DNA from: Bacillus marasmi
Lineage (GTDB): Bacteria > Bacillota > Bacilli > Bacillales > Cytobacillaceae
Reading direction: 5' to 3'
Assembly: GCF_902168435.1 (NCBI RefSeq)
Contig: NZ_LR656170.1
Coordinates: forward strand, 164,928 to 228,927
Length of the DNA stretch: 64,000 nt
The notes beneath the pieces were generated by a model. It saw only the letters and a program-made list of their open reading frames with translations. It was not told where the DNA came from and searched no databases. Of the stretch, positions 1 through 20,974 are shown in pieces (position 1 is the stretch's first letter; every line of letters begins with the position of its first letter). Position numbers and translations under genes: made by a program.

Positions 1-399
1 CAATTTCTACTGTTCCAACATTGTGCATAGAAGCACTTTCATGAGTTGTGTTGAAAGTACCTGCGCCTGAACCTTGACCTAATACGTTATAGAAACCTAA
101 AGTACCGTCATGGCATGTTAAACACATATCAGCTTCAGTTTCTTCAAACTTTAATAGTGTTGCACTATCTCCGTTGTGGGTGCTGTGACAGTTACCACAA
201 GAGTTTGTATTGTTTTGGAAATTACCGTGTGTTTTGTGTTGGTTAACTTGACCGTTGTTATCGATCGTTCCAACATTTATTCCAGGAGCCGGGTTACTTG
301 GTGTTGGTGTAAACTCCTCAGCAGAAGCCATTAATGCAAAGAAGCTTACAAGGATAAGCGTCATAAGTGCAGTAAAGCTAAGTTTTAACTTACTCATTT
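1..399 (-). CDS. Secreted hexaheme-type cytochrome c, copy A (3' end outside window)
   Basis: The first 133 codons of a third tandem copy of the secreted multiheme cytochrome are visible. It begins MSKLKLSFTALMTL with a Sec signal peptide ending near ASA/EEF, and it has no lipobox cysteine. Two haem c motifs are in view (CGNCH and CLTCH); the complete paralogues downstream have six. The start is set by GGAGG about 10 bases upstream. The signal peptide is nearly that of copy B, but most of the mature part is identical in DNA to copy C, so the gene is a mosaic. The likely role is extracellular electron transfer or storage, by inference from haem content and secretion. The C-terminus cannot be judged. 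Confidence 0.85.
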
Positions 400-483
400 C
401 ATAAAAACCTCCCTAAAATTCTCTCTGTTTTCTCTCTTTAATCTCTCTTTATTCTCTAAATTTTAGATAGCACTTGTTTTCGG

Positions 484-495
484 CATCACCACCTT
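484..495 (-). promoter_or_regulatory. Second, far-upstream SD-like element, copy A leader
   Basis: On the minus strand this reads AAGGTGGTGATG, a one-base variant of the extended anti-16S sequence AAGGAGGTGATG. It lies 85 bases upstream of the copy A start codon, separately from the gene's own ribosome binding site. A GAGAGAA-rich purine tract lies between. The same element occurs at the same distance before copies B and C. Confidence 0.5.
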
Positions 496-666
496 TAAGG
501 AAAGAGTTTGAATTACTATCCGTGCAAGGAAAAAGCAGGATTACACTAGGGAGTTATGCAACGCTCTACTTGATCCATACTTTTTGGTCATATTAGCTTT
601 ATTTAGTTATCTAATTATTTTAGGTAATTAAATAAAGCTATTATTAGAAAAATCATCATAGCTAGA

Positions 667-699
667 AAACAAGGTAGTAATGTTATTACTACCTTGTTT
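667..699 (-). terminator. Rho-independent terminator after copy B
   Basis: Perfect 15-base arms (AAACAAGGTAGTAAT and its complement) enclose a 3-base loop. On the minus strand the stem is followed by a short T run. It lies 35 bases past the copy B stop, so copy B and copy A are probably separate transcription units. The rest of the 400-733 gap holds the copy A leader, and no further gene was seen there. Confidence 0.75.
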
Positions 700-733
700 C
701 ATTTAAAGAGCTAACAAATAGTTAAACTATTTA

Positions 734-1900
734 TTATTTAATATTAGATTTTTCGTTAAATGTTGGAGTCCAGCCGTGTCTTGAACTCCATACCCAGTTC
801 CAAAGTTCACCAGTTCCTGCAACAGGATCTCCTACTTGTTCTGGCATTGGAACTAACACATCGTAAAGTTTCTCTTTTTCAGCTTGTGGAACTTCAATAT
901 GGCCAACAAGACCTTCATTGTGGCTAGATGTGTGGCATGTATAACATACAGCCATGTTAGTGTACTTCTTAAGTGAAGAACCACCAACACTGATGTCTTT
1001 CATGTATTCTTTAGCAACAGCTTCAGTCCAGCCTTCGCCGCCTTCTTCAACTGGCTTCATGTAATCTGCAATTGTTTTACCGGCAACATCTTTAAGAAGT
1101 CTAATGTCAGTACCGTGAGCGTAGTGACAGCTAGCACAGCTACGTCCAGCCGAAGAGCTGTTTGTAGTATGTGAGTAATGGCCAAGCGCAGTTTGCGATC
1201 CACTTCCAGTATCATAAGTGTCATGACAAGTAGCACAGAAATTAGCATATGTTACTTTATCAGTACTTCCTAAAGGACCTTTTGAAGTTGTAATCTTTAA
1301 TCCAGAATTTGTAGAGCTGCTGTTGATATCTTCAAAAGCAGGATCTGGAGTTAAATCCAATTTAATTGGTGTTGTTGAATATGTAACACCAGCAACAGTT
1401 GTTTTTAATAAACGGTCATTTGTAGAACCGTGTGGATTGTGACAGCTAGAGCATTGTAATTCGTCTGTATTAGTTGCGGCATCAAGCGCACCAGGTGCTG
1501 AACCAATTGCTACTGTACCAACATCGTGCATGGAAGCACTTTCATGAGTTTCATTGAATGTACCTGCACCTGAACCAGTACCTAATACGTTATAGAAACC
1601 TAAAGTACCATCATGGCATGTTAAACACATATCGGCTTCAGTTTCTTCAAACTTTAATAGTGTTGCACTGTCACCATTGTGAGTGCTGTGACAGTTACCA
1701 CAAGAGTTTGTATTGTTTTGGAAGTTACCGTGTGTTTTGTGTTGATTCACTTCACCATTGTTATCGATTGTACCAACATTAATCCCTGGTGCTGGATTGC
1801 TTGGAGTTGGAACGAATTCCTCAGCTGAAGCCATCATTGCAAAGAAGCTTACAAGGATCAACGTCATTAGTGCTGTAAAGCTAAGTTTTAACTTGCTCAT
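734..1900 (-). CDS. Secreted hexaheme cytochrome c, copy B
   Basis: A protein of 388 residues with a Sec signal peptide (about residues 1-26, cleavage near ASA/EEF) and six CXXCH haem motifs: CGNCH, CLTCH, CSSCH, CATCH, CASCH, CYTCH. Some pairs resemble the doubled-CXXCH family. There is no C-terminal anchor, sortase signal or lipobox, so the mature protein should be released or wall-associated. An in-frame extension to 2053 exists, but the start at MSKLKLSF is preferred because GGGAGG lies just before it and it aligns with copies A and C. It differs from copy C by a C-terminal insertion (around NEGLVGHIEVPQAEKEK). Likely an electron carrier outside the membrane; the redox partner is unknown. 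Confidence 0.88.
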   Translation of the reverse strand: MSKLKLSFTALMTLILVSFFAMMASAEEFVPTPSNPAPGINVGTIDNNGEVNQHKTHGNFQNNTNSCGNCHSTHNGDSATLLKFEETEADMCLTCHDGTLGFYNVLGTGSGAGTFNETHESASMHDVGTVAIGSAPGALDAATNTDELQCSSCHNPHGSTNDRLLKTTVAGVTYSTTPIKLDLTPDPAFEDINSSSTNSGLKITTSKGPLGSTDKVTYANFCATCHDTYDTGSGSQTALGHYSHTTNSSSAGRSCASCHYAHGTDIRLLKDVAGKTIADYMKPVEEGGEGWTEAVAKEYMKDISVGGSSLKKYTNMAVCYTCHTSSHNEGLVGHIEVPQAEKEKLYDVLVPMPEQVGDPVAGTGELWNWVWSSRHGWTPTFNEKSNIK

Positions 1901-1984
1901 TTCAAAATACCTCCCTATAATTCTCTCTTTTTCTCTCTTTTTCTCTCTTTTTTCTTTAAAAATCCTGGTAGCGCAAGTTTTCTG

Positions 1985-1996
1985 CATCACCTCCTT
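1985..1996 (-). promoter_or_regulatory. Second, far-upstream SD-like element, copy B leader
   Basis: The minus strand reads AAGGAGGTGATG, a complete complement of the 16S rRNA 3' end, 85 bases upstream of the copy B start. It is only two bases from an ATG, too close for normal initiation. The purine-rich (GAGAGAAAAA) spacer follows. It resembles the STAB-SD type of mRNA-stabilising site known from Bacillus thuringiensis cry3A. A CCTCCC stretch at 2031-2040 on the same strand could pair with it. Confidence 0.55.
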
Positions 1997-2273
1997 AAAG
2001 GAAAAATAAGCGTTATGTCTAGTAGTAGTTACACGGGAGGAATATAACGCCACACATAATCCTTTTATTAAAAAAATCTTATTTCCATTTAGGCATCCAA
2101 TTATATTAAGATAACTAAATCGAAGTAAGATTTCTGGAGAAATACTATATTATCCAACAAACATATTTCGACTATTTCACCCTTTAAATATATCAATATA
2201 ATCAAGTTTCGGTTTGTCTTTTTTTGCGAAAAATTTTACAATTTGTTGGCAAAGCAACATTTATACGATGTAA

Positions 2274-2305
2274 AACAAGGTAGTAATATATATTACTACC
2301 TTGTT
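2274..2305 (-). terminator. Rho-independent terminator after copy C
   Basis: A perfect 32-base palindrome (16-base arms, AACAAGGTAGTAATAT and its complement) is followed by TTTT on the minus strand, 50 bases past the copy C stop. It shares the ACAAGGTAGTAAT stem with the terminator after copy B, so the whole gene-terminator unit was duplicated. The remainder of the 1901-2356 gap is the copy B leader and AT-rich sequence without a visible gene. Confidence 0.75.
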
Positions 2306-2356
2306 CCATCCCAACATTGTTAAGAGCTAACAAATAGTAACCTATTTGTTGTCTAA

Positions 2357-3466
2357 TTATCTAATGTTAGCCTTCTCATTGAATGTTGGGATATATTTGT
2401 TATATCTTGAGCTCCATACATAGTTCCAAAGTTCGCCAGTACCAGCATTTGGATCTCCAACTTGAGCTGGCATTGGAGTATCAAGCGGATGGCTTGAAGT
2501 GTGGCAAGTCCAGCATACAGACATGTTAGTGTATTTCTTAAGCGCAGAACCACCAGCACTTACGTCTTTCATGTAATTAATTGCTGTTTCTTCAGTCCAA
2601 CCTTCTCCGCCGTCTGCAACTGATTTTGTGTAATCTGCAATTGTTTTACCTGCAGCATCTTTTAGAAGTGTAATATCAGTACCATGAGCATAGTGACAGC
2701 TTGCACAGTTACGTCCAGCTGAAGAGCTGTTTGTAGTATGCGAATAATGACCTAGTGCAGTTTCTTTTCCGCTGCCAGTATCATATGTGTCATGACAAGT
2801 AGAACAGAAGTTAGCGTAGTTTACTTTATCAGTGCTACCTGCAGGTCCAACTGATTTTGTAATCTTTAAGCCAGAATTTGTTGAGCTGCTGTTGATAGCT
2901 GCAAAAGCAGGATCTTCAGTTAACTGTAATTTGATTGGTGTTGTTGTATAAGTTACACCTGCAACAGTTGTTTTTAATAGACGATCGTTTGTAGATCCGT
3001 GAGGATTGTGACAGCTAGAGCACTGTAACTCCTCTGTTGATGTGTTGTCTAATGCACCAGGAGCCGAACCGATTTCTACTGTTCCAACATTGTGCATAGA
3101 AGCACTTTCATGAGTTGTGTTGAAAGTACCTGCGCCTGAACCTTGACCTAATACGTTATAGAAACCTAAAGTACCGTCATGGCATGTTAAACACATATCA
3201 GCTTCAGTTTCTTCAAACTTTAATAGTGTTGCACTATCTCCGTTGTGGGTGCTGTGACAGTTACCACAAGAGTTTGTATTGTTTTGGAAATTACCGTGTG
3301 TTTTGTGTTGGTTAACTTGACCGTTGTTATCGATCGTTCCAACATTTATTCCAGGAGCCGGGTTACTTGGTGTTGGTGTAAATTCTTCAGCTGAAGCCAT
3401 TGCTGCAAAAATGCTCATCATAATAAGCATTACTAGCGCAGAAAAGCCAATCTTGACCTTACTCAT
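2357..3466 (-). CDS. Secreted hexaheme cytochrome c, copy C
   Basis: A protein of 369 residues with signal peptide (MSKVKIGFSALVML..., cleavage near ASA/EEF) and six CXXCH motifs: CGNCH, CLTCH, CSSCH, CSTCH, CASCH, CWTCH. It is very similar to copy B over the mature region, and 311 bases of it are identical to copy A. The signal peptide differs from the other two. It starts at ATG 9 bases after GGGAGG. The NHL gene ends 113 bases upstream on the same strand, so it may be read through from the upstream operon as well as having its own leader element. Likely an exported electron-transfer protein; no anchor is visible. Confidence 0.88.
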   Translation of the reverse strand: MSKVKIGFSALVMLIMMSIFAAMASAEEFTPTPSNPAPGINVGTIDNNGQVNQHKTHGNFQNNTNSCGNCHSTHNGDSATLLKFEETEADMCLTCHDGTLGFYNVLGQGSGAGTFNTTHESASMHNVGTVEIGSAPGALDNTSTEELQCSSCHNPHGSTNDRLLKTTVAGVTYTTTPIKLQLTEDPAFAAINSSSTNSGLKITKSVGPAGSTDKVNYANFCSTCHDTYDTGSGKETALGHYSHTTNSSSAGRNCASCHYAHGTDITLLKDAAGKTIADYTKSVADGGEGWTEETAINYMKDVSAGGSALKKYTNMSVCWTCHTSSHPLDTPMPAQVGDPNAGTGELWNYVWSSRYNKYIPTFNEKANIR

Positions 3467-3551
3467 TGATGAAACCTCCCTAATTATCTCTTCTTTTCTC
3501 TTTTAACTGGTCCTTTATTGTCTATATCAACCATATATACTACTTTTCTAA

Positions 3552-3563
3552 CATCACCTCCTT
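3552..3563 (-). promoter_or_regulatory. Second, far-upstream SD-like element, copy C leader
   Basis: AAGGAGGTGATG on the minus strand, 86 bases upstream of the copy C start, directly after the NHL gene stop. The ATG in it opens only a four-codon frame (MLEK), arguing against a conserved leader peptide. Confidence 0.5.
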
Positions 3564-3579
3564 AAAGGAAGGAAATCTA

Positions 3580-4548
3580 TTAATAAAAGACAGAGACTCT
3601 TTGATTAATAGTGTCTGTTACAAAGATGGTTCCTCTTTCATCTACATAAAGGCCGTTTGGAAGATACAACTGATCATTATTTGATCCCATTCCACCTAGG
3701 ACATTTTCTTGATTCCCGTCTTTGTCATATACATAAATATTGTGAGAAAGATTGTTTACGATATAAACGTTGCCTCTACCATCAACACCGATACCTCTTG
3801 GATTAACAAAGCTAGATTGCCCTTTGCCATCCTTCGAACCATTGATAATTTTTTCAAACTTTCCATCTTTATTGAAGACTTGTACACGGTTATTTCCGGA
3901 ATCACTTACGTATACGTTTTGATCTTCATCGACTGCTACACTGTTTGGAGCAATAAATTGACCCTCACCTGTACCAGCTCCACCGATTTCAGCTACTTTT
4001 TCTCCATCAAGTCCAAACACAAAAACTTTATGTTTCTCAATATCTGTTACGTATATTTTGTTATCAACAATTCTTAATCCACCTGGTGCTTTAATTAGCG
4101 TTTCTTTACCTGTTTCTTTGAAATAGTGCTGGAATTCACCTTTAGAGTTAAAAACAGAGATTTTTCCATTATACATATCCGCTACATATACATTTCCTTG
4201 TTCATCGCCATCTATTCCATAAGGAAATTGAAACTCCCCTTCTTTTGTTCCTTTTTTACCAAACTTAGTTATTGGAGTTCCAGATTGGTCGAAAACTTGA
4301 ATTTGCTTGTTACCAGTATCAGACACATAAATGTATTCGCCGACTTTCGCTACATCCATAGGTTTTTTAAGCGGTTCTTCAAATGTACCGAAAATCGTTG
4401 ATCTGAATTCAACTTCTCCAGTCGGATTTGCAGATGCAACAATTGGCTTAACCTTAGCTTGTAGATCCAAGAAATAGATACCTGCATAAAGCGCTACTGT
4501 TAGTCCAACCACTGTGCTCATCCATATATATACTGTTTTCTTTTTCAA
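3580..4548 (-). CDS. Membrane-anchored NHL-repeat beta-propeller protein
   Basis: 322 residues. An N-terminal membrane segment (about residues 8-27) is followed by repeated NHL units with patterns such as YVSDTGNKQIQVFD, VYVADMYNGKISVF, VYVSDSGNNRVQVF and IFVTDTINQRVSVF, enough for a six-bladed propeller outside the membrane. The start is TTG with GGGAG about 10 bases upstream. It lies 35 bases after the TPR gene and is followed by the hexaheme genes, probably in one transcript. NHL propellers usually act as protein- or glycan-binding scaffolds. A role in docking or assembling the neighbouring cytochromes is inference from position. Confidence 0.8.
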   Translation of the reverse strand: MKKKTVYIWMSTVVGLTVALYAGIYFLDLQAKVKPIVASANPTGEVEFRSTIFGTFEEPLKKPMDVAKVGEYIYVSDTGNKQIQVFDQSGTPITKFGKKGTKEGEFQFPYGIDGDEQGNVYVADMYNGKISVFNSKGEFQHYFKETGKETLIKAPGGLRIVDNKIYVTDIEKHKVFVFGLDGEKVAEIGGAGTGEGQFIAPNSVAVDEDQNVYVSDSGNNRVQVFNKDGKFEKIINGSKDGKGQSSFVNPRGIGVDGRGNVYIVNNLSHNIYVYDKDGNQENVLGGMGSNNDQLYLPNGLYVDERGTIFVTDTINQRVSVFY

Positions 4549-4583
4549 TGGTGGTCATCTCCCTTTTTAAGCTATCCCATTCA

Positions 4584-5267
4584 TTATTTTTTCGCCAATT
4601 TTTCTAATGCTTCTGCTGCTGGCTTGTACATAGGATCATAGCTCAATGCTTCCTTATAGAGCTTTTCAGCATCCTTGGATTTTCCTTGGTCTTCAGCTAC
4701 CTTACCAATTTCAAAAATAATGTCAGTATTCGCTGGCATGATTTTATTTGCTTCCTCTAGGGCAACTAATGATTCGTCATATTTCTTTAATTGACGTAAA
4801 ACCATACCTTTTAAAAGGAAACCTTTATAATCTCTTGGAGCCAGATCTGATGCTTTTTTCGCTTGCTTTAGAGCGTCGTTGTAGCGTTCTTGATCTGCGT
4901 AAACAAGGCCTAAGTTAAAATATGCTGAAACGTTTTCCTTGTCTAAATCAACCGCTAATAACAACTGTTTAACTGCTTCTTCATTTTTATCATTCAAGTG
5001 ATAAGTATATCCAAGGTTGACCCGATTCATAGAATCATTTGGTTTCTTACTAACTTCGTTTTTATAGTATTCAAGCTGTTGAGCTAATCTTGTATCTTCT
5101 TGTTTCCATAGATATTTATCACTGATCAAATATCCCGCAACCAAGCTAATGATTAGCGTGGCAATTATCATCGAAATCCCTGTTAATTTTGAAAAGTGAT
5201 TATTTTTCGATGGTGTTCCTTCATTTTTTTCCTGGTTATCTATTTTCGGGAGTTCTTGTGCTTGCAT
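4584..5267 (-). CDS. Membrane-anchored tetratricopeptide (TPR) protein
   Basis: 227 residues: a short hydrophilic N-terminus, one membrane segment (around TGISMIIATLIISLVAGYLI), then TPR motifs with the usual spacing (for example NLGYTYHLNDKNEEAVKQ, NLGLVYADQERYNDALKQ). The start at MQAQELPK is chosen because AGGAGG lies 6 bases upstream; an in-frame ATG seven codons earlier has no good site. Charge distribution suggests the TPRs are outside. TPR proteins near multiheme cytochromes can help cytochrome assembly, but here that is inference from the neighbourhood. Confidence 0.8.
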   Translation of the reverse strand: MQAQELPKIDNQEKNEGTPSKNNHFSKLTGISMIIATLIISLVAGYLISDKYLWKQEDTRLAQQLEYYKNEVSKKPNDSMNRVNLGYTYHLNDKNEEAVKQLLLAVDLDKENVSAYFNLGLVYADQERYNDALKQAKKASDLAPRDYKGFLLKGMVLRQLKKYDESLVALEEANKIMPANTDIIFEIGKVAEDQGKSKDAEKLYKEALSYDPMYKPAAEALEKLAKK

Positions 5268-5369
5268 AAGTATCCTCCTCATATTCATGAGTTATTTTGT
5301 TATGAATCTGCCATAACTGAGCATTATGACAGATTCAATCTTTATTTTTATCCGCCAGTATATTTCAAA

Positions 5370-6524
5370 CTACTTATGGCACCTCGTACACGATTTCTGA
5401 ATATGACATTGGTAGCATGTTTTATCTGGCTTCTTTTGTGTTGCAGGTACTTTCACAGGATGCGATGTACGCCAAGTTTCTAAGTGGTCTTTTGAGTGAC
5501 AAGTTGCGCAAACTACCTTGTTTTGCGACGTGCTTACCGTATTATCATTATCATGACAAACGGAACAGGTTTCTTTGTTTTTGGTAGCATAACTTCCATG
5601 ATTACTTATTAAATCAGGTGTATGGCTGGCTGGCCGCTTGTTATGGCAGTCAACACAGAATGAATTTTCTTTTGAATAACTGATATGGCTCTTTTTCGAA
5701 GTTTGATTATCTTGACCTAGAAATTGATCAATTACAGATGGCTCTTCAAAGCCTTCCAACTTGTTTGTAGACATATCTTTGTGACACTTATGACACTGGG
5801 AAAGCTCAGTTTTTGCTAATTCGCCGTGTTTCCCATTCACAAACGATGCTTCCTTATGGCTTTCTGGTACCATTCCAGTTGAGTGACAGGCACTACATTC
5901 AATGGTTACATCTTTTGCTTTATGACACTCGATACAAGTATCCATGTTTGGCTTTACATACTTCATATCGCTCATTGCATTTGCGCCAATTGTCGAATTC
6001 CATTTTTCATAATCAGCTTTGAAAGTCATTTTTCGATCATCGATATTACCGTGTGCTGTACCAGCGTGACATTCCACACACTTAACATCATTCTCTTTGT
6101 GATTTACGTGATCAACAATGATATCCCCTGAAACTGAAAACTCACGTTTGAAAACATTGTGACATTTCTCACATGACTCATCAGGGACCTGATCGGGCAT
6201 ACGGATTGGAGCGATGTATTTGCCTGTTTGCTTTTTATAGACCTCAACTAAGCCATTCGCCTTCGCTTTTGCGTATTCTTCCACACCGGACTGAATGTGA
6301 CATTGAACGCAATCCACTTCACTATGACTGGATGCTTCCCATGTATAAAACTCCGGTTTCATCTCGTGACAGGAGGAGCAGAACTCTGAACTTGATGTAG
6401 TTTCTACTCCAACGGCCCCGATTGAGAAGAAGACGACAATGAAAAACAGAGCTACTGTTAGATACTTATACAATTTGTAGCGATTCCTAGCAGGAGAGGT
6501 CTGTTTCATTTGTTCTTCTTCCAT
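5370..6524 (-). CDS. Membrane-anchored dodecaheme cytochrome c (NapC/NirT-like N-terminus)
   Basis: 384 residues with one N-terminal membrane helix (about 23-41) and twelve CXXCH motifs: CSSCH, CVQCH, CEKCH, CVECH, CIECH, CSACH, CHKCH, CVDCH, CSVCH, CATCH, CYQCH, CTRCH. The first four follow the NapC/NirT layout (FCSSCHEM, then HSEVDCVQCH), the family that takes electrons from menaquinol. The last two lie in the final 15 residues. AGGAGG sits 8 bases before the ATG. It starts 38 bases after the decaheme gene, implying one operon. It is probably a longer wire reaching into the wall; the acceptor is unknown. Confidence 0.85.
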   Translation of the reverse strand: MEEEQMKQTSPARNRYKLYKYLTVALFFIVVFFSIGAVGVETTSSSEFCSSCHEMKPEFYTWEASSHSEVDCVQCHIQSGVEEYAKAKANGLVEVYKKQTGKYIAPIRMPDQVPDESCEKCHNVFKREFSVSGDIIVDHVNHKENDVKCVECHAGTAHGNIDDRKMTFKADYEKWNSTIGANAMSDMKYVKPNMDTCIECHKAKDVTIECSACHSTGMVPESHKEASFVNGKHGELAKTELSQCHKCHKDMSTNKLEGFEEPSVIDQFLGQDNQTSKKSHISYSKENSFCVDCHNKRPASHTPDLISNHGSYATKNKETCSVCHDNDNTVSTSQNKVVCATCHSKDHLETWRTSHPVKVPATQKKPDKTCYQCHIQKSCTRCHK

Positions 6525-6562
6525 CTTTGAATCCTCCTGTTTTCATACATCGTTATTTAAAG

Positions 6563-7864
6563 CTACTTCTCACCTTTAAATCCAGTTCTGTGGCAGAATT
6601 CGCAATAAACATCGGTTGGGGCATCAGTAACTTCGCCTTCGTTAACCTTTGTTCGATCGTGACACACTAAGCAGTTTTCTTTATCTTGATTGGTTTGTGC
6701 CTTGCCGGCATGCTGTGTTAACCACGCATCGCTATCTCCATGACTTGTCGGACGTTCAGCGTGACATGCACTACAGAATTGATTTTTGCGAGAATCAGTT
6801 TTTACTACATTAATATTTTTTGTGTATTTCTCTTTCCCAGTACCGTTTAATAGTTCATTAATATCTTGTTTCGCAAACACTTTAATCCATTTTGAATCAG
6901 TATGACAGTTGATGCACTTATCAAACTCTTCTACTGCATTGCTACCATGATTTTGATTCCAATCTGCAGTTTGGTGAGTCTTAGGTGTATCAATTTCTGT
7001 ATGACATGTTTTACATTCCATTGAAAGCTTAACTTCATCATTTGCTTGCTTACCAACTGCTTGAAGGATGATATCTTGAGTCTTTTTATGAGATTCCTTC
7101 ACTTCGGCAGCTTCTGCCTTATGCTCTTCTTTCTTACCATGGTTGCTTTCTGGTAAGCTATAAGCGATATCCTCCCAAGGCTTTTTACCTTGATTTACTT
7201 GGTTGTGACAGTCAATACATGTTCCCATGTTTGGTGCCATGTACTCTTTGCCCATTAGCTTTTCAGCAACTTCAGGAGTCCATTTGTCTAAGTTTTCCTG
7301 TGTATTTAATCCGCGTTCAACCACTTTAGCATGTGCTACACCGCTGTGGCAGGTAATACAAGGAATTCCTTCATCAATATGTTCTTTGTGGTTTACCTTC
7401 AAATCTCCCGTTGCCGTTACTAGACGATTTTCCGAGTGACACTGTACACAGTTCACATTTTCAACTGCATCCGTTTGTGCAATTGGATCTGGTGGTCCTA
7501 CAATATGGTAGTAAACTTCTTTTAAAGCATAGACTTTATGCACCATAGTATTTACCATACCTGGATTGACGTGACACTGAACGCAAGAAATTTCACTGTG
7601 AGCACTCGCTTCAAACGTGATATGCTCTGGCCCCATCTCATGACAAGCTTTACAAAACGATGGAGTCGATGTCGCTTCAATAGCTCCATACACTGTTCCT
7701 AACATCGCAATGAATACAAATAATGACGCAAATAGTAATTTCCAACGGTTAACTGGATTTTTCCAATCAGTTTCTTTGATCTTTCCTATTAACCTTTTAA
7801 TCGCTCCAGGCTTTTTTTCGGCTGGATTACCTTCTGGGTTCTTTTTCTTTCTCCAAAAAGCCAC
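6563..7864 (-). CDS. Membrane-anchored decaheme cytochrome c (NapC/NirT-like)
   Basis: 433 residues starting at GTG, with AAAGGGTGA upstream and ATG absent at the aligned position. A basic cytoplasmic N-terminus is followed by one membrane helix (about 43-61) and ten CXXCH motifs: CKACH, CVQCH, CVQCH, CITCH, CIDCH, CKTCH, CINCH, CSACH, CLVCH, CEFCH. A Lys/Glu-rich linker lies between motifs five and six. The first four motifs fit the NapC/NirT quinol-oxidising module. It is a clear paralogue of the gene at 8503-9837, including the C-terminal HRTGFKGE signature. It heads the operon running through dodecaheme, TPR and NHL genes. Likely menaquinol-dependent electron export. Confidence 0.87.
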   Translation of the reverse strand: MAFWRKKKNPEGNPAEKKPGAIKRLIGKIKETDWKNPVNRWKLLFASLFVFIAMLGTVYGAIEATSTPSFCKACHEMGPEHITFEASAHSEISCVQCHVNPGMVNTMVHKVYALKEVYYHIVGPPDPIAQTDAVENVNCVQCHSENRLVTATGDLKVNHKEHIDEGIPCITCHSGVAHAKVVERGLNTQENLDKWTPEVAEKLMGKEYMAPNMGTCIDCHNQVNQGKKPWEDIAYSLPESNHGKKEEHKAEAAEVKESHKKTQDIILQAVGKQANDEVKLSMECKTCHTEIDTPKTHQTADWNQNHGSNAVEEFDKCINCHTDSKWIKVFAKQDINELLNGTGKEKYTKNINVVKTDSRKNQFCSACHAERPTSHGDSDAWLTQHAGKAQTNQDKENCLVCHDRTKVNEGEVTDAPTDVYCEFCHRTGFKGEK

Positions 7865-7952
7865 TGATGTTCACCCTTTCTGCTGTTTATCTAGTTATTT
7901 TATCTATGGTTTTTACCTCTCTAATGGTAGTATCCATTATGTAAGCGATTTT

Positions 7953-7975
7953 TCCAAATGGACAATTTGTGAAAA
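7953..7975 (-). promoter_or_regulatory. Candidate activator site and promoter of the decaheme operon
   Basis: The minus strand has TTTTCACAAATTGTCCATTT, then a -35-like TTGGAA, 17 bases, and a -10-like GATACT. The TCCA-TGGA palindrome plus TTTTCACAA block recurs before the second decaheme gene. The remainder of the 7865-8289 gap is AT-rich and shows no gene. Confidence 0.45.
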
Positions 7976-8289
7976 AAACTGTTATTTAAATCGCTTTTAA
8001 TTGACACTGCCGCCGCAGTAAAAAACATTAGGGTGATGAAAAACTATTAAATCAACATTCAGCAACTTTAGGAGATGATTAACAACTTGATAGTGTTGTT
8101 TACCCTTTTCGTATAAATTATATCGATAACATAAAGATAACCTAGCGAAAACACACAAAAAACACATAAAAATGGCAGATAGGAAACAAATATGTTTACA
8201 CTGTGTGAACTTTGTTACAGAATTTCGAAAAACTCTTTATGTAGCTAATACTACGAATCCAATCTCTCAATTTATATTGAAATAATACT

Positions 8290-8333
8290 AAAAAAGGAAG
8301 GTGGCAATCCTTTTCATCAAGATTACCACCTTC
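8290..8333 (-). terminator. Rho-independent terminator after the second decaheme gene
   Basis: On the minus strand GAAGGTGGTAATC pairs with GATTGCCACCTTC (one G-T pair), followed by CTTTTTT. It lies about 170 bases past the stop of the 8503-9837 gene, separating the two decaheme transcription units. Confidence 0.75.
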
Positions 8334-8502
8334 ATAACTTATTTAGCTCAATCGCATTAACTCTTAAACCACGGTTATTTTGTAAATATCTAAGTATAAT
8401 TCAACTGATATTTCCAAATCCTCGAATCATTATTCTTTTTACTCGGAATAAGAATTCACAAACTTCTTATTATTTCGTGATCATCTGTCTTTCTAAGATG
8501 GA

Positions 8503-9837
8503 CTACAGAGATTCACCTTTGAAGCCTGTTCTGTGACAGTATTGGCAGTACACTTCATTTTGAGCTTTTACGTTTTCTTCCTTACCTTTGTCCTTGGTGC
8601 TCTCTACGGTTTGATCTCTGTCGTGACAAACGAAGCACTTCGCTTTATCATCATCTGTACGCGCTTGATCTGCGTGGTTGCCTGTCATCCATGTGTAACT
8701 ATCAAGGTGACTTTCAGGACGTTTTTCATGGCAAGAGCTACAATATTTATTTTCACGCGCTTCTTTTTTCACAACAGTAACGTTTGGTGAATATTTTTCT
8801 TTTTCAGCGCTACCATTTAATAGGCTCTCAATGCTTTGTTTACCAAGTACCTTAATCCATTTTGAATCACTGTGACAGTTAATACACTGGTCAAGCTCTT
8901 GGATTGCTGCGCCGCCGTGGTTTTGTCCCCAATCGCCATTAGCATGGTTAGTAGGCGTATCTACTTCTTTATGACAAAGGCTACATTCCTGCGTAAGCTT
9001 AACATCAGTTTTTTGTGCATTTACTTTCTTAAGGACGATTTGCTGTTGATCATCCTTTTTCTCTTTCTTTTCTTCAGCTTTAGCTACGTTTTCGTCTTTC
9101 TTTTTACCATGTCCCTCATTAGGATTTTCTGGTAAAGCGTAATTTGGATCTTTCCAAGGCTTTTTACCCTCGTTCACTTGCGTATGGCAGTCAATACATG
9201 TACCCATATTTGGATTCATGTTTTCTTTGCCCATCAATTTATCTGCGTTAGCCGTTGTCCATGAATCATATGTTGTGGAATCATTAATGCCACGCTCAAC
9301 TACTTTTGCGTGAGCCACACCACTATGACATGTGATACATGAAATACCTTCTTTTATGTGGTCATTATGAGCAACAATCAGGTCTCCATTTGGTGAAACT
9401 TCGCGTTCCATAGAGTGACACTGCTGACAGTTCACATCCAATACCGCAACAGTTTGGACGATTGGATCTGGTGGTCCAACAATATGGTAATATACTTCTT
9501 TAAGTGATTCCATTTTATGAAGAACCATCTCAACATTACCTGGTGCTATATGACAGGATACACAAGTTTGTTCACTGTGCGCACTGTTTACGAAGGTAAC
9601 GTGTTCAGGCGCCATCTCGTGACACATTTTACAGAAGGATGGATTATTCGTGTACGCAATTGCTCCACCAACAAAGCCAATTCCACCAATAAATACAAAA
9701 AGTAATATTACAACTAACTTCCAGCGATTGACTGGATTCTTCCAATCGATATTCTTAATTCTTCGCCACAATCCTGGTTTTTTACCCTCTGGATTATCCT
9801 CAGACGGACCCTTCTTTCCTTTTTTCCAAAAAGCCAT
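8503..9837 (-). CDS. Membrane-anchored decaheme cytochrome c paralogue (NapC/NirT-like)
   Basis: 444 residues. A Lys-rich N-terminus is followed by one membrane helix (about 41-60) and ten CXXCH motifs: CKMCH, CVSCH, CQQCH, CITCH, CIDCH, CSLCH, CINCH, CSSCH, CFVCH, CQYCH. It has the same layout as its neighbour, with a highly charged KKKDENVAKAEEKKEKKDD linker between motifs five and six. ATG 9837 is preferred over GTG 9846 because GAGGGG is correctly spaced only for the former. It is monocistronic by its own terminator. The likely role is electron transfer from menaquinol; why two close paralogues are kept is unclear. Confidence 0.87.
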   Translation of the reverse strand: MAFWKKGKKGPSEDNPEGKKPGLWRRIKNIDWKNPVNRWKLVVILLFVFIGGIGFVGGAIAYTNNPSFCKMCHEMAPEHVTFVNSAHSEQTCVSCHIAPGNVEMVLHKMESLKEVYYHIVGPPDPIVQTVAVLDVNCQQCHSMEREVSPNGDLIVAHNDHIKEGISCITCHSGVAHAKVVERGINDSTTYDSWTTANADKLMGKENMNPNMGTCIDCHTQVNEGKKPWKDPNYALPENPNEGHGKKKDENVAKAEEKKEKKDDQQQIVLKKVNAQKTDVKLTQECSLCHKEVDTPTNHANGDWGQNHGGAAIQELDQCINCHSDSKWIKVLGKQSIESLLNGSAEKEKYSPNVTVVKKEARENKYCSSCHEKRPESHLDSYTWMTGNHADQARTDDDKAKCFVCHDRDQTVESTKDKGKEENVKAQNEVYCQYCHRTGFKGESL

Positions 9838-9907
9838 TTTACTCACCCCTCTTAATAAAAAATATTATCTCTCTATAACAATAGTATCTTACAAGATATG
9901 GTTACAT

Positions 9908-9939
9908 ATCCAATGGATATTTTGTGAAAACTTTCTCAA
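9908..9939 (-). promoter_or_regulatory. Candidate redox operator upstream of the second decaheme gene
   Basis: Contains ATCCAATGGAT followed by TTTTGTGAAAA, matching the block at 7953-7975. On the plus strand it also reads TTGTGAAAACTTTCTCAA, one mismatch from the Bacillus Rex consensus TTGTGAA-N4-TTCACAA. It sits about 70-100 bases before the start codon. Regulation by Rex or an FNR-type protein is inference. Confidence 0.45.
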
Positions 9940-14079: not shown

Positions 14080-14700
14080 TTAATACATTTCTAGCATTTG
14101 ATGTTTTTGGGCATATTCGAGCCAATCGCGTTTATTGGTAGTGCCAAGCTTCTTACTGATGCTTCTTCGGTGGTTTTCAACTGTACGAATACTAATATTC
14201 ATCGTTGCAGCTATATCCTTTTGGGTATAGCCTTTTAGCGTTAAGATAAAGGTTTCCTGTTCGCGCGGTGAAAATGGTGTTTCCCAAGCATCCGCTTCGA
14301 CCTTTTTACCCCAAACCTGTTCATTGGCCACCTTTTTGCCATGGAGAATCTGTTCAATTGACTTTATAATCGCATCACTTTTTTGATTTTTCACAAGAAA
14401 TCCATCTGCACCAAGGTCAAAAGCTTTCTTTTGATAAGCAATTTCATCATACATTGAAAAAACGATAATTTTGCCCTTCGGCACAAGCTTTCTCATTTCA
14501 GGCAACGCCAAAAACCCATCAAGTCCGTTTGGCATTGAAAGGTCCATTAACACTAAGTCCACATCGAAATTTGTTGCTTTTTGAATCGCCTCACGACCAT
14601 CAGCCGCAAATAAAATAGACTCTATCGGAAATGCATCCTTAAGCAACAATGCCATGCCATCGCGAACAATTTCATGATCATCAACGATTAATACATTCAT
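14080..14700 (-). CDS. NarL/LuxR-family response regulator (NreC-like)
   Basis: 206 residues. The receiver domain (about 1-120) has the acidic pair in VDDHE, phospho-acceptor Asp in VDLVLMDLSMPNG (about residue 53), and the conserved Lys in FLVKNQ. The C-terminal LuxR helix-turn-helix reads FSPREQETFILTLKGYTQKDIA...RTVENHRRSI. GGAGGAGG precedes the ATG. It is co-transcribed with the kinase gene upstream (65-base gap). The pair lies divergent from cydAB, so it may regulate respiration in response to oxygen, as NreBC does in Staphylococcus carnosus; the exact targets are not known. Confidence 0.85.
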   Translation of the reverse strand: MNVLIVDDHEIVRDGMALLLKDAFPIESILFAADGREAIQKATNFDVDLVLMDLSMPNGLDGFLALPEMRKLVPKGKIIVFSMYDEIAYQKKAFDLGADGFLVKNQKSDAIIKSIEQILHGKKVANEQVWGKKVEADAWETPFSPREQETFILTLKGYTQKDIAATMNISIRTVENHRRSISKKLGTTNKRDWLEYAQKHQMLEMY

Positions 14701-14765
14701 GCTTTTTTCCTCCTCCTCTGAGGTTTTTGAACAGAACCTATCTTTCTTTTATTAAAAATCATTCC

Positions 14766-15773
14766 TTACTTACTGCTCTTTATCGTAATATATCCTTCCA
14801 CTCTGTTTGCTCCGTTATCTTTGCTGATCCATTTAATATCACCGTTCAGCATGTTTACTCTTTCCTTCATATGTTTTATCCCTAGTCCAGTTCCAGTAAG
14901 TTTTTTGAAGTTAAAACTCAAGCCGTTATTCGAGATTTGGAAATAGACTTCTTCATCTACCTTAAAAATATCGATGATAATAGCGGTAGCCTTTCCATGT
15001 CGGACAGCATTATTTACCGCCTCCTGAATGATGCGATACAGGTGTAAACCCTCGTCGTTATCAAACTTCAGGTCGTTTGGTAAATGAATATTTAAGGAGC
15101 ATTGGATGTTATAAAGGGAGCACCAATCTTCAACCGAAGATCGCAAAGCTGATTCAAACCCCAAATTGTCATAAAGCTGCGGGCGTAATTCTTTTGTTAA
15201 ACGTTTCAAGCACTGAAGTGTGTCCTCCATTACGACATTCATTTTCTCTAGTCGCTCTGCATATTCCGGACTATCGACGTGACGTTTGATTCCATCAAGC
15301 CCCAAATAGATGCTATAGACGCTTTGACCAATATGATCATGAAGTTCTCTTGCAATCCGTTTGCGTTCGCTTTCCTGAGCGAGCATCGTTTCGTGAATCA
15401 GCAGTTCCTGGGTTTTTACCTTTTCGACTTGATTCATTAAACTCGGATTCCGAATGATAAGCACTCTGTAATTTCCACCATCCATTTCGATTTTATTCAT
15501 CGACATCTCAAAATCCGTTTCCGTATCAACGTAATTTGGCATATGAGAACGGAAACTTGGCAGAGCATTATCATTGGCGAGAATACAGCGCTCTTCATGC
15601 TCTGATACTTCACGAAGCTGGCAGTAGCTACAGTATGGTACCGATTCGCCAATTTTCCATCCAGTGATTTGATAGGCCTTTTTATTTATGTATTGTACTG
15701 TTCGATACTCATCCATGATGACAATTCCTTCAGCACACTCTTCAACAACCTTTTTAAAATGTTCATCTCTCAC
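14766..15773 (-). CDS. PAS-domain sensor histidine kinase (NreB-like), fourth cluster Cys absent
   Basis: Cytoplasmic kinase of about 335 residues with an N-terminal PAS domain, HisKA_3 dimerisation/phospho-acceptor motif (ESERKRIARELHDHIGQSVY) and an HATPase_c domain (NNAVRHGKA, GTGLGIKHMKERV). No membrane segment is present. The PAS domain has CSYC, eleven residues, then C followed two residues later by Ala. The NreB oxygen sensor uses C-x2-C-x11-C-x2-C to hold a 4Fe-4S cluster, so three of four ligands are here. GTG 15773 is preferred (GGTGA upstream); ATG 15785 has almost no spacer from its AGG. It pairs with the adjacent response regulator. Confidence 0.83.
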   Translation of the reverse strand: MRDEHFKKVVEECAEGIVIMDEYRTVQYINKKAYQITGWKIGESVPYCSYCQLREVSEHEERCILANDNALPSFRSHMPNYVDTETDFEMSMNKIEMDGGNYRVLIIRNPSLMNQVEKVKTQELLIHETMLAQESERKRIARELHDHIGQSVYSIYLGLDGIKRHVDSPEYAERLEKMNVVMEDTLQCLKRLTKELRPQLYDNLGFESALRSSVEDWCSLYNIQCSLNIHLPNDLKFDNDEGLHLYRIIQEAVNNAVRHGKATAIIIDIFKVDEEVYFQISNNGLSFNFKKLTGTGLGIKHMKERVNMLNGDIKWISKDNGANRVEGYITIKSSK

Positions 15774-15810
15774 AAATATCACCATCCTAAAAAGACATAA
15801 ATTTCCGATG

Positions 15811-15997: not shown

Positions 15998-17344
15998 ATG
16001 GATGAGGTATTGTTGTTGAGCAGACTTCAGTTTGCAATCACAGTTATCTACCACTTCTTATTTGTACCGTTAACAATTGGATTAGTCATTTTAGTGGCAG
16101 TAATGGAGACAAAGTATGCTCGGACACTTGATCCACTATACCGCAGGATGGCAAATTTCTGGGGTAAATTGTTTACGATTAACTTTGTCTTAGGGATTGT
16201 CACTGGGATCACGATGGAATTCCAATTCGGAACAAACTGGTCCGAATACTCAAAGTACATGGGAGACATTTTCGGTTCTCCACTTGCAATTGAAGCATTA
16301 GTTGCCTTCTTCTTGGAATCTACGTTTATTGGAATTTGGATTTTTGGTAAAGATAAGGTTTCTCCAAAAATGAGAGCCTTCTCGATGTGGATGGTTGCGA
16401 TTGGTACAAATATTTCAGCACTTTGGATTATTACCGCTAATGGCTTTATGCAAAATCCAGTCGGATATGTAATCCGAAACGGAAGAGCAGAATTGCAGGA
16501 TTTCTTGGCTCTAGTTACCAATCCTTATGCTTGGCATATGTTTTTCCATACTGTAGTAGGTAGTTATATCGTTGGTTCATTCTTTGTAATGGCGATCAGC
16601 GCATACCATTTATTACGTAAAAACGAAGTACCATTTTTCAAAAAATCATTCAAATTTGCACTCATTCTAGGTTTAATCGCTGCAACTGCAACACCATTTA
16701 TCGGTCATAAGAGTGGTACATTTGCTGCAGAAAAGCAACCAGCAAAGGCTGCAGCATTAGAAGCTGTTTGGGAAACTGAAAAGGGCGCACCTTTCCATCT
16801 TCTCCAAATTCCTGACCCTGAAAATGAGAAAAACAGCATTGAATGGTTAACCATTCCTAAACTAGGAAGCTTTATGTACACAGAAAGCTTTGATGGTGAA
16901 ATTACAGGTTTAAAAGATATCCCAGAAGATGAAAGACCGAATGTAAATATGGTATTTTACAGTTTCAGAATTATGGTAGCACTCGGGATTTATTTCATGG
17001 CATTAACATGGTATGGAGTGTACTTATATAAAAAAGGTAAACTAGAAAACTCCAAAAAGTTCTTGAAAACCGTGCTATATTCAATGCTCCTCCCTTATGT
17101 AGCGATTAATGCTGGATGGGTGGTTGCTGAGGTTGGGCGTCAACCATGGGCTGTATATGGATTAATGAAAACGGAGGATGCCGTGTCACCAATCGCACTT
17201 TCACAAATTATCTTCTCAATTGGCGGACTCGTCTTGTTCTACACTGTGCTCATTATTGCGGATGTGTACTTGTTAAAGAAATACGCAAAACACGGACCAG
17301 CTCCTGAACTACAATCTGAGGAGGTTGTAACACATGTCTCATGA
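15998..17344 (+). CDS. cydA: Cytochrome bd quinol oxidase subunit I
   Basis: 448 residues, the length of Bacillus-type CydA with a short Q-loop. About nine membrane helices. Motifs include the N-terminal LSRLQFAITVIYHFLFVPLT (haem ligand His), the first-half FGTNWSEYSKYMGDIFGSPLA region, and GRQPWAVYGLMKTEDAVSP typical of the quinol-oxidising side. GGAGG precedes the ATG. It carries the haems and oxidises menaquinol, reducing oxygen with high affinity. It overlaps cydB by 11 bases. cydCD, often in the same operon, is absent here. The divergent NreBC-like pair suggests oxygen-linked control. Confidence 0.97.
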   Translation: MDEVLLLSRLQFAITVIYHFLFVPLTIGLVILVAVMETKYARTLDPLYRRMANFWGKLFTINFVLGIVTGITMEFQFGTNWSEYSKYMGDIFGSPLAIEALVAFFLESTFIGIWIFGKDKVSPKMRAFSMWMVAIGTNISALWIITANGFMQNPVGYVIRNGRAELQDFLALVTNPYAWHMFFHTVVGSYIVGSFFVMAISAYHLLRKNEVPFFKKSFKFALILGLIAATATPFIGHKSGTFAAEKQPAKAAALEAVWETEKGAPFHLLQIPDPENEKNSIEWLTIPKLGSFMYTESFDGEITGLKDIPEDERPNVNMVFYSFRIMVALGIYFMALTWYGVYLYKKGKLENSKKFLKTVLYSMLLPYVAINAGWVVAEVGRQPWAVYGLMKTEDAVSPIALSQIIFSIGGLVLFYTVLIIADVYLLKKYAKHGPAPELQSEEVVTHVS

Positions 17345-18362
17345 TTTATTGGCAGTCATTTGGTTTGGCTTATGGGGATTGATTTGGACCGTCTATTTTG
17401 TTCTCGATGGATATGCACTTGGAACTGGAATGCTATTCCCGTTTATTACGAAAAATCGCCAGGAGCGCAATCAACTCCAAGAAGCAATCGGGCCATTTTG
17501 GGGAGGGAATGAGGTTTGGCTGATTACAGCGGGCGGTGCAACTTTTGCCGCCTTCCCGGAAGTATACGCCAACATGTTCAGTTATCTATATACACCATTT
17601 ATGTTAATCTTATTTGCTTTATTTTTCCGAGCAGCCGGGCTAGAATTCATGCATAAAGACGATTCCCCTTTATGGCAAAAAAGCTGGAAATGGGCATTCT
17701 TTGTTGGAAGCTTTCTAGTCGCACTGCTGATCGGCGTCGCCTTTACAAATCTATATTACGGTCTATTGATCGGAGCCGATGGCTATGAAGGTAACCTATT
17801 ATCATTATTGCATCCATACGGCATTTTAGGTGGGCTACTGTTTATTACGATGTTTATCGTGTCTGGGTCGCTTTGGCTTAGCTTAAAAGTCACAGGAATT
17901 GTAAAATCACGCGCGTTAGCGATTGCTAAAAAGGCAAGTGTTGTGAATATTTTACTGTTAGCTATTTTCCTATTAGCTACCAATAATCGCACTAATTTAT
18001 TTGTTAATTTCGTCGAGCAGCCGCTATACTGGCTTGTTCCATCATTATCAGTTGTGTTTGCACTGCTAGTGTTCCCACTCATTTCGAAAAATCGAAACGG
18101 ATTTGCGTTCGCATCACTTTCACTGTCAATCGCAACGCTTTCAGCAACCGGCTTTATCGGCTTGTTCCCGAATATGCTGCCTTCACGACTCGATGAAAGC
18201 TTTAGCACAACGCTTTATGCCGCTGCTGGTAGCGAACTAAACTTAAAAATCATGCTGATTGTCGCACTCATCTTTGTCCCAATCGTCATCGGCTATCAAA
18301 TTTGGAGCTACACCGTATTTAAAGACAAAATCACAAAAGAAACCGCACAAGGATATCATTAA
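17334..18362 (+). CDS. cydB: Cytochrome bd quinol oxidase subunit II
   Basis: 342 residues, about nine membrane helices. It has the conserved N-terminal region LDGYALGTGMLFPF and the WGGNEVWLITAGGATFAAFPEVYA motif of CydB. Translation is coupled to cydA: the start lies inside the cydA end and GAGGAGG is within the cydA reading frame. It is the structural partner of CydA in the bd oxidase. No cydX-like short gene is evident after it; palindromic repeats begin within 6 bases of the stop. Confidence 0.97.
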   Translation: MSHDLLAVIWFGLWGLIWTVYFVLDGYALGTGMLFPFITKNRQERNQLQEAIGPFWGGNEVWLITAGGATFAAFPEVYANMFSYLYTPFMLILFALFFRAAGLEFMHKDDSPLWQKSWKWAFFVGSFLVALLIGVAFTNLYYGLLIGADGYEGNLLSLLHPYGILGGLLFITMFIVSGSLWLSLKVTGIVKSRALAIAKKASVVNILLLAIFLLATNNRTNLFVNFVEQPLYWLVPSLSVVFALLVFPLISKNRNGFAFASLSLSIATLSATGFIGLFPNMLPSRLDESFSTTLYAAAGSELNLKIMLIVALIFVPIVIGYQIWSYTVFKDKITKETAQGYH

Positions 18363-20738: not shown

Positions 20739-20762
20739 GAAAATTTCCCCTTTCATTATTAA

Positions 20763-20933: not shown

Positions 20934-20963
20934 TTGAAAATTTTGTTAAGGACATTGTAGAAT
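20934..20963 (+). promoter_or_regulatory. Sigma-A-type promoter of the membrane protein gene
   Basis: TTGAAA, 18 bases, TAGAAT. The operator that follows would cover the transcription start. Confidence 0.55.
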
Positions 20964-20974
20964 GATGGTACAAA

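What the first reader, a model, noticed from the sequence alone, without database searches (positions are those of the whole stretch)
1..9837. Multiheme electron-export locus in a Gram-positive spore-former
Seen: two decaheme and one dodecaheme membrane-anchored cytochromes, three secreted hexaheme-type cytochromes, plus membrane-anchored TPR and NHL proteins, all on one strand. Known: NapC/NirT proteins oxidise menaquinol, and secreted multiheme proteins can carry electrons to extracellular acceptors. Inferred: an inner (10 haems), middle (12 haems), outer (6 haems, free) relay crossing the wall. Such sets are rare in Bacillaceae, and the TPR/NHL pair may be assembly or docking factors.
Basis: partly seen in the sequence, partly recalled or inferred. 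Interest (0 to 1): 0.72.

Follow-up and report, generated by a model that had tools for sequence, protein, structure and literature searches.

The report
Gram-positive haem-wire electron export locus
A soil bacillus carries a conserved set of many-haem proteins that most likely pass electrons from its membrane out through its thick cell wall, possibly along protein wires resembling those of Geobacter.

Summary
Window 1-9846 (minus strand) encodes two decaheme and one dodecaheme NapC/NirT proteins, a membrane TPR protein, an NHL propeller and secreted hexahemes. The genome adds, left of the window, the rest of hexaheme 3, a fourth hexaheme and a seven-haem Big_5 protein. The set is not rare: 80 of 193 genomes of the family match the hexaheme profile, and 27 of 30 such regions examined hold the intact gene order. 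Across Bacillota the cassette dodecaheme-TPR-NHL-hexaheme recurs (17 of 20 regions); all 24 hexaheme-positive genomes of 398 also hold the NHL and dodecaheme families. A profile of diverse hexahemes finds the Geobacter nanowire protein OmcS as best solved structure (1.4e-12); the Bacillaceae-only profile does not reach OmcS. Best reading: an electron-export conduit of the Thermincola ImdcA/CwcA kind, in which NapC/NirT proteins oxidise menaquinol and OmcS/CwcA-like hexahemes, perhaps polymerised, carry electrons through the wall. TPR and NHL are dedicated companions, perhaps assembly factors. New variant of a known kind.

The parts
8503..9846 (-). decaheme NapC/NirT-type membrane cytochrome (likely menaquinol dehydrogenase)
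   Evidence: 10 CXXCH; PF03264 1.5e-21; hydrophobic segment at residue 38
6563..7864 (-). second decaheme NapC/NirT-type membrane cytochrome
   Evidence: 10 CXXCH; PF03264 2.2e-23; 10 conserved His outside CXXCH plus M77 in 26 family members
5370..6524 (-). dodecaheme NapC/NirT-type membrane cytochrome, first gene of the conserved cassette
   Evidence: 12 CXXCH; profile best PDB hit NrfH 2j7a 1.1e-16; M55 and 10 His outside CXXCH invariant
4584..5288 (-). membrane-anchored TPR protein, second gene of the cassette
   Evidence: TPR_2 3.3e-18; hydrophobic segment at residue 32; conserved position
3580..4548 (-). NHL beta-propeller protein with N-terminal hydrophobic segment, third gene of the cassette
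   Evidence: NHL 1.1e-28; profile matches NHL propellers in the PDB; conserved position
2357..3466 (-). hexaheme copy 1, secreted, OmcS/CwcA-like
   Evidence: 6 CXXCH; six invariant His outside CXXCH in the family; diverse family profile hits OmcS 1.4e-12
734..1900 (-). hexaheme copy 2 (frame 734-2053; start at 1900 by homology)
   Evidence: 6 CXXCH; 84% identical to copy 1
2..397 (-). hexaheme copy 3, N-terminal part only; the rest lies left of the window behind a one-base assembly gap
   Evidence: Outside the window: copy 4 at L009:16501-17532 and Big_5 heptaheme at L009:14437-16188 (L009 = G000:C27:146000-165900; window base 1 = C27:164928)

Best explanation
The locus is an extracellular electron export conduit of a Gram-positive bacterium. 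Membrane-anchored NapC/NirT cytochromes (two decahemes and a dodecaheme) take electrons from menaquinol at a NrfH-like site. Secreted hexahemes related to OmcS and likened to Thermincola CwcA carry the electrons through the peptidoglycan, probably as short or long end-to-end haem polymers. A Big_5-bearing heptaheme at or near the surface likely passes them to outside acceptors such as iron oxides or humics. The membrane TPR and NHL proteins are dedicated companions of the hexaheme, most simply assembly or export factors. Shown here: gene content, conserved order, ligand conservation, and sequence kinship to OmcS (through distant members) and NrfH. Inferred: electron direction, polymerisation, the acceptor, and the roles of TPR, NHL and heptaheme.
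For: Haem counts and domains. NrfH is the best PDB match of the dodecaheme profile. OmcS is the best PDB match of the diverse hexaheme profile at 1.4e-12, with the six haem motifs aligned in order and five of the six invariant distal His set on OmcS His; next are OmcE 7.9e-6 and MtrA 3.7e-5. The heptaheme and dodecaheme profiles do not list OmcS at E<=1. Decoys of OmcS with loops shuffled and motifs kept: 0 of 300 reach the real 48.9 bits. Cassette order dodecaheme-TPR-NHL-hexaheme: 24 of 25 loci (the 25th is cut by its contig end), 27 of 30 further-fetched family regions (8 of these 30 appear to be the same contigs as loci by length) and 17 of 20 regions from 16 other Bacillota genomes. Co-occurrence in the 398-genome sample: all 24 hexaheme genomes have NHL and dodecaheme, against 6 and 5 of 374 others; 12 of the 24 gave no row to the NHL or dodecaheme alignments. 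ResB present. Literature: Thermincola ImdcA (10 haems, tag TherJR_1117) and CwcA (6 haems, tag TherJR_1122), CwcA modelled on OmcS (PMC7911101, sections read).
Against: No expression, haem loading or activity data. No structure prediction could be run. The narrow Bacillaceae hexaheme profile did not reach OmcS at E<=1; its hits were MtrA 2.2e-8 and OmcE 4e-6, and a Bacillaceae-only model gives OmcS 9.6 bits, so the OmcS link runs through distant homologues. Decoys with OmcS haem blocks permuted score 37.1 on average and 18 of 300 reach the real score, so motif order adds little. Six invariant distal His fit a soluble monomer as well as a filament. [quoted passage not shown] No OcwA-like terminal reductase or PdcA was sought in this genome.
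Confidence: 0.72

Rival explanations
1. The cytochromes are the electron supply of a nitrogen- or sulfur-oxide reductase rather than an export conduit: NrfH/TorC-like quinol oxidation feeding soluble MtrA/NrfB-like carriers.
For: NapC/NirT domains match NrfH, NapC and TorC models below their cut-offs; hexahemes match MtrA and, weakly, NrfB; nrfA and an nrfH-like gene are in the genome.
Against: nrfA and its neighbouring nrfH-like gene lie on another contig, C16. No known catalytic subunit is in the cluster. The conserved His outside CXXCH number 10 for ten haems, 10 for twelve, 6 for six and 8 for seven, which leaves little room for an open catalytic haem in the secreted proteins.
Confidence: 0.15
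2. The hexahemes are secreted but monomeric wall-embedded or diffusible electron carriers that hop electrons across the wall without forming filaments; TPR and NHL serve docking or haem-protein folding.
For: Signal-peptide-like N termini and no anchors found; MtrA and weak NrfB kinship; two or more distinct hexaheme paralogues kept by operon position across species, unusual for a homopolymer.
Against: OmcS and OmcE, both filament formers, are the first and second PDB hits of the diverse profile. PMC7911101 reports that CwcA of Thermincola could not be stabilised in soluble form.
Confidence: 0.4
3. The TPR-NHL pair has a general envelope role and sits beside the cytochromes by shared regulation only.
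For: TPR and NHL are very common folds; NHL homologues also ring in 6 of 374 sampled genomes without a hexaheme match, though one of these, G124, does hold a hexaheme found by the broader model.
Against: 24 of 24 hexaheme genomes hold the NHL family, and the order dodecaheme-TPR-NHL-hexaheme is fixed in 17 of 20 regions of other Bacillota, with two full cassettes plus a TPR-NHL-hexaheme set in L083.
Confidence: 0.1

Closest known systems
Thermincola ImdcA-PdcA-CwcA-OcwA extracellular electron transfer pathway (PMC7911101)
   Same: Gram-positive; membrane-anchored decaheme quinol oxidase plus a hexaheme likened to OmcS. The locus tags of ImdcA (TherJR_1117) and CwcA (TherJR_1122) lie five apart, consistent with the same cluster order, though not tested here.
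   Different: Here: Neobacillus-like bacilli, a dodecaheme as constant partner, the TPR-NHL pair, up to four hexahemes and a Big_5 heptaheme. PdcA and OcwA counterparts were not sought.
OmcS nanowire of Geobacter sulfurreducens (6EF8/6NEF)
   Same: Six haems, six CXXCH in the same order, CHxxH at haems 1, 3 and 5, aligned distal His; best PDB hit of the diverse profile.
   Different: Low overall similarity; Geobacter is diderm; polymerisation not shown here. The Geobacter osc companion operon is said to serve OmcS folding, secretion and morphology (PMC13194489, passages). That its OscD is beta-propeller-like is my recall; kinship to this NHL was not tested.
NrfH/NapC/CymA quinol dehydrogenases
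   Same: N-terminal anchor, PF03264, CHxM at haem 1; NrfH best PDB match. CymA is recalled, not tested.
   Different: 10-12 haems instead of about 4; no adjacent known reductase subunit.
[quoted passage not shown]
   Same: That paper places SmhB on a branch from bacillary hexahemes; they appear to be the family seen here (not checked sequence by sequence).
   Different: It assigns no function to the bacillary hexahemes; the two result sections read describe no TPR-NHL cassette.

Membership tests
Thermincola-type Gram-positive EET pathway | membrane-anchored multiheme quinol oxidase beside a secreted OmcS-like hexaheme | tested here: met
Thermincola-type Gram-positive EET pathway | direct orthology with ImdcA and CwcA | not tested
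Thermincola-type Gram-positive EET pathway | surface terminal reductase (OcwA) and periplasmic PdcA | not tested
   Not sought in this genome; the only related attempt (PF13447 in G124) rang nowhere, controls included
Thermincola-type Gram-positive EET pathway | reduction of extracellular acceptors or anodes | not testable with these tools
   needs culture work
OmcS-type cytochrome nanowires | six CXXCH with enough conserved His for bis-His coordination of all haems | tested here: met
   six motifs and exactly six further invariant His in 26 diverse members; coordination itself inferred
OmcS-type cytochrome nanowires | significant sequence kinship to OmcS | tested here: inconclusive
   diverse profile 1.4e-12, but the Bacillaceae-only profile has no OmcS hit at E<=1 and block-permuted OmcS decoys score nearly as well
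OmcS-type cytochrome nanowires | haem ligated by a His of the neighbouring subunit; filament formation | not testable with these tools
   structure prediction switched off
NapC/NirT/NrfH quinol dehydrogenases | PF03264 with N-terminal anchor and CXXCHxM at haem 1 | tested here: met
NrfHA nitrite reductase | adjacent NrfA catalytic subunit | tested here: not met
   the only NrfA match is on contig C16, away from this locus, beside an NrfH-sized NapC/NirT protein

The most novel reading that the evidence does not exclude
A widespread Bacillota cassette for building cytochrome nanowires across and beyond a monoderm wall: a dodecaheme quinol dehydrogenase as the electrical base plate, a TPR-NHL pair as dedicated assembly machinery, and an ordered set of non-identical hexahemes as segments of one or several haem filaments capped by a Big_5 heptaheme, present in ordinary soil bacilli for which I found no report of electroactivity.
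Probability: 0.38. Interest if true: 0.82.

Novelty: new variant of a known kind. Interest (0 to 1): 0.6.

Why it matters
How electrons cross a thick Gram-positive wall is an open question; the multihaem routes I could read about were worked out in thermophiles, Thermincola and Carboxydothermus. A conserved locus in common Neobacillus-like bacilli would make the question testable in easier organisms. The fixed TPR-NHL pair names two candidate assembly genes whose deletion could show directly whether such cytochromes need dedicated factors. It also implies that many soil bacilli may respire extracellular acceptors. I found no paper in the library that joins Neobacillus with multiheme cytochromes (0 papers).

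Tried and rejected
Structure prediction is switched off, so no fold search was possible; PDB sequence profiles were used instead. Pfam and NCBIfam gave generic paired-CXXCH and NapC/NirT domain matches; the NCBIfam MtrA/DmsE-, NrfH- and NapC-type equivalog or subfamily models were all below their cut-offs. The narrow hexaheme profile missed OmcS.

An Fnr-type box was sought: 41 matches with up to 2 mismatches against 32.8 expected (11 of 100 shuffles reached 41). Many lie inside cytochrome genes, where TGTGACA is the complement of CXXCH codons. Two one-mismatch sites lie between genes (8204-8219, 9923-9938). Not counted as evidence. Promoter and terminator scans were at chance level (27 found against 31.9; 7 against 6.3).

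No relatives of the dodecaheme or hexaheme 1 on plasmids at E<=1e-10 (no match in 72,556 records). Papers not held: Baquero 2023 and Wang 2019. A paper search joining NHL repeat, tetratricopeptide, multiheme and extracellular electron transfer found 0 papers.

Considered and rejected: Nrf locus (nrfA is elsewhere); recent tandem duplication alone (many paralogues group by operon position across species, although own copies 1 and 2 sit in the same clade); chance CXXCH motifs. On checking the draft I dropped a guess that the weak family matches were the heptaheme: one search shows that they are a longer form of the hexaheme in the same gene order.
Full report
What is there. The minus strand of window 1-9846 encodes, in transcription order, decaheme (8503-9846), decaheme (6563-7864), dodecaheme (5370-6524), TPR protein (4584-5288), NHL protein (3580-4548), hexaheme 1 (2357-3466), hexaheme 2 (734-1900 by homology of the start) and the beginning of hexaheme 3 (2-397). 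The window begins right after a one-base N in the assembly (L009:18928 = C27:164927), with the same stretch repeated on both sides. The PF09699 search of the own genome and region L009 show that the array continues: hexaheme 3 beyond the N, hexaheme 4 (L009:16501-17532) and a 583-residue protein with seven CXXCH and a Big_5 Ig-like domain (L009:14437-16188).

Envelope placement. One N-terminal hydrophobic segment is found in each of the three NapC/NirT proteins and in the TPR and NHL proteins. The three hexahemes examined have signal-peptide-like N termini with AxA, and none of the nine proteins examined has an LPXTG or a lipobox (hydropathy and motifs only).

Quinol side. The dodecaheme profile (A6, 17 sequences) has NrfH as its best solved relative (2j7a, 1.1e-16). 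Met at CXXCHxM of haem 1 is invariant (M55), as is its counterpart M77 in the decahemes. That this Met belongs to the menaquinol-side haem of NrfH is recalled. His outside CXXCH conserved in at least 95% of members: 10 for the decahemes, 10 for the dodecaheme, 6 for the hexahemes, 8 for the heptaheme family.

Hexahemes. In 26 diverse members (A4: 7 from the window's own group, 19 from other Bacillota) exactly six His outside the six CXXCH are invariant (H57, H74, H125, H156, H243, H261 in hexaheme 1). That would suffice for six bis-His haems. Searched against the PDB, this profile finds OmcS first (6ef8, 1.4e-12), then OmcE (7tfs, 7.9e-6), MtrA (6r2q chain A, which the entry labels cystathionine beta-synthase; 6R2Q is named as the Mtr complex in PMC9473688; 3.7e-5) and 9yuq (0.0014). 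The printed alignment, in two stretches, sets all six haem motifs of OmcS in order and places H74, H125, H156, H243 and H261 on OmcS His (H74 on His16); H57 falls outside it. By the passages of PMC9473688, OmcS and OmcE share haem-binding motifs and distal His while loops diverge, so this is the part expected to be kept, and in both a His of the neighbouring subunit ligates a haem. PMC7911101 models the Thermincola hexaheme CwcA on OmcS in the same way at 18% identity (section 3.3). Controls: the heptaheme and dodecaheme profiles do not list OmcS at E<=1. OmcS (residues 8-159 and 199-406 as printed) scores 48.9 bits with the diverse hexaheme model and at most 9.6 with the four other models tried, one of them the Bacillaceae-only hexaheme model. 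Shuffling OmcS loops while keeping motifs destroys the score (0 of 300 reach it), and so does shuffling with all His kept (0 of 300). Permuting the haem blocks lowers it only to 37.1 on average, and 18 of 300 reach the real value, so the kinship signal lies in haem neighbourhoods more than in their order. The Bacillaceae-only profile gave MtrA 2.2e-8 and OmcE 4e-6 but no OmcS at E<=1. I therefore call the hexahemes OmcS/CwcA-like, not proven nanowire subunits.

Conservation in the family. In 24 of 25 the order dodecaheme, TPR-sized, NHL-sized, hexaheme holds; the 25th (L024) is cut by its contig end. A decaheme precedes in 22 of 25 (L031 and L032 have an eight-haem version, L024 is cut). A six- to eight-haem protein of over 500 residues follows in 24 of 25; L032 has a three-haem frame there. 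In the GTDB family sample, 80 of 193 genomes and 11 of 25 genera match the hexaheme profile at E<=1e-20. Of the 80, 31 match at E<=1e-100 and 49 only more weakly (1e-24 to 1e-47). All 10 close regions and 17 of the 20 weaker ones hold dodecaheme-TPR-NHL-six-haem protein in order. In the 17 a decaheme precedes and the hexaheme is a longer form (504-693 residues), followed by an eight-haem heptaheme-family protein in 16 of them and a five-haem one in L111. Of the remaining three, L119 and L123 have the same order with broken frames and L115 has the hexaheme alone. In a class-wide sample, 3 of 398 genomes match the diverse profile at E<=1e-40, the own genome among them. So the locus is common in this family and scarce in the rest of the class.

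Conservation in the phylum. 24 of 398 Bacillota genomes, from 11 family labels and the own genome among them, match the hexaheme profile. Of 20 regions from 16 of these genomes, chosen mostly by best score, 17 hold dodecaheme-TPR-NHL-six-haem protein in this order on one strand. The other three: L080 has a seven-haem and a twelve-haem protein after NHL; L086 lacks the dodecaheme; L084 has a twelve-haem protein alone, though another region of the same genome (L098) has a fourteen-haem protein, TPR and NHL together. L083 holds two full cassettes plus a TPR-NHL-hexaheme set. A heptaheme-like protein directly follows the hexaheme in six of the 20 (L069, L072, L074, L076, L077, L079). None of these 20 regions shows a decaheme directly before the dodecaheme, but 3 of the 12 regions do (L094, L097, L105). 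In the 398-genome sample the NHL profile at E<=1e-60 rings in 30 and the dodecaheme profile at E<=1e-50 in 29. Both sets contain all 24 hexaheme genomes, leaving 6 and 5 among the other 374; one of these, G124, does hold a hexaheme that only the broader model finds. Fisher p values are 3e-33 and 6e-34, not corrected for relatedness. Twelve of the 24 genomes contributed no row to the NHL or dodecaheme alignments, so this is not only self-matching. G124 shows decaheme-dodecaheme-TPR-NHL-hexaheme in L094.

Paralogues. In a tree of 47 hexahemes many copies group by operon position across species: the last copies of five loci and own copy 4 form one clade (100/100), and the first copies of six loci with own copies 1 and 2 form another (100/99). 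A second group of loci has clades for positions 1, 2 and 3. The position classes are therefore old and kept in order, which suggests different roles, for instance different segments or different filaments, while own copies 1 to 3 look like a later increase within one class (copy 3 was not in the tree).

How it most likely works. Menaquinol is oxidised by the NapC/NirT anchors. Electrons pass to hexahemes that span the wall, perhaps as haem polymers, and through the heptaheme or directly to outside acceptors. TPR and NHL are most simply assembly or export factors. A passage of PMC13194489 says the Geobacter osc operon beside omcS is proposed to serve OmcS folding, secretion and morphology; that one of its proteins is propeller-like is recalled. 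Direction of flow, polymerisation and acceptor are inferred.

Rivals. A nitrite-reductase supply role is unlikely: the only nrfA match, with its own nrfH-like neighbour, lies on another contig and no known catalytic subunit is here. A monomeric carrier role for the hexahemes stays open (about 0.4).

Known versus new. Gram-positive export through ImdcA and CwcA is published (PMC7911101: abstract, introduction, section 3.3 and discussion read; PMC7829351: abstract and two result sections read). Bacillary hexahemes appear in the latter as unassigned. I found no paper on Neobacillus multiheme cytochromes (0) and none joining the NHL and TPR terms with multiheme extracellular electron transfer (0); the last search listed 12 of 1,354 papers, none of the 12 with Neobacillus. 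Most subscription papers, including Baquero 2023, are not held, so the cassette may be described there. Other papers seen as passages only: PMC9473688, PMC13194489, PMC12954529, PMC10599522, PMC12246660, PMC11748539; PMC10954620 and PMC12307469 held none of the terms sought. Verdict: new variant of a known kind.

Noticed in passing
window 14080-15785 (minus) beside 15998-18362 (plus): A LuxR-type response regulator and a HisKA_3 sensor kinase (distant NarL/NarQ-type matches, below equivalog cut-offs; cysteine-rich N-terminal part CSYCQ...C) lie divergent from cytochrome bd oxidase genes (subunit I; the next frame taken as subunit II by eye). A possible oxygen or redox switch near the cytochrome locus.
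   Followed up: partly
window 19317-20756 (minus) and 20962-22221 (plus): A protein like type III sulfide:quinone reductase (2.8e-20, below cut-off) is divergent from a TsoY-family membrane protein (2.1e-149): another possibly quinone-linked pair close to the electron-export genes.
   Followed up: partly
window 46348-52056 (minus): A 1902-residue protein with PA14 repeats (nine matched stretches), SH3 domains and a C-terminal glucosaminidase domain, among what look like surface-polysaccharide genes (by eye).
   Followed up: partly
window 398-733 and 2054-2356 (minus): Near-identical inverted repeats (AACAAGGTAGTAAT...ATTACTACCTTGTT) follow hexaheme genes 2 and 1, terminator-like to the eye but not flagged by the scan; each hexaheme may end its own transcript.
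   Followed up: no
L009:17988-19325, immediately left of window base 1: Hexaheme 3 spans a single N with the same stretch on both sides: an assembly join in near-identical tandem copies, so the true copy number could differ from four.
   Followed up: partly
L083 (unnamed Bacillota genome G279): Two full dodecaheme-TPR-NHL-hexaheme cassettes and a TPR-NHL-hexaheme set within 20 kb: the cassette behaves as a unit that duplicates.
   Followed up: no
   Followed up: no
PDB entry 9yuq: A 218-residue 'putative multiheme cytochrome c' with 16 chains matches the diverse hexaheme profile (0.0014); the chain number hints at another cytochrome filament.
   Followed up: no
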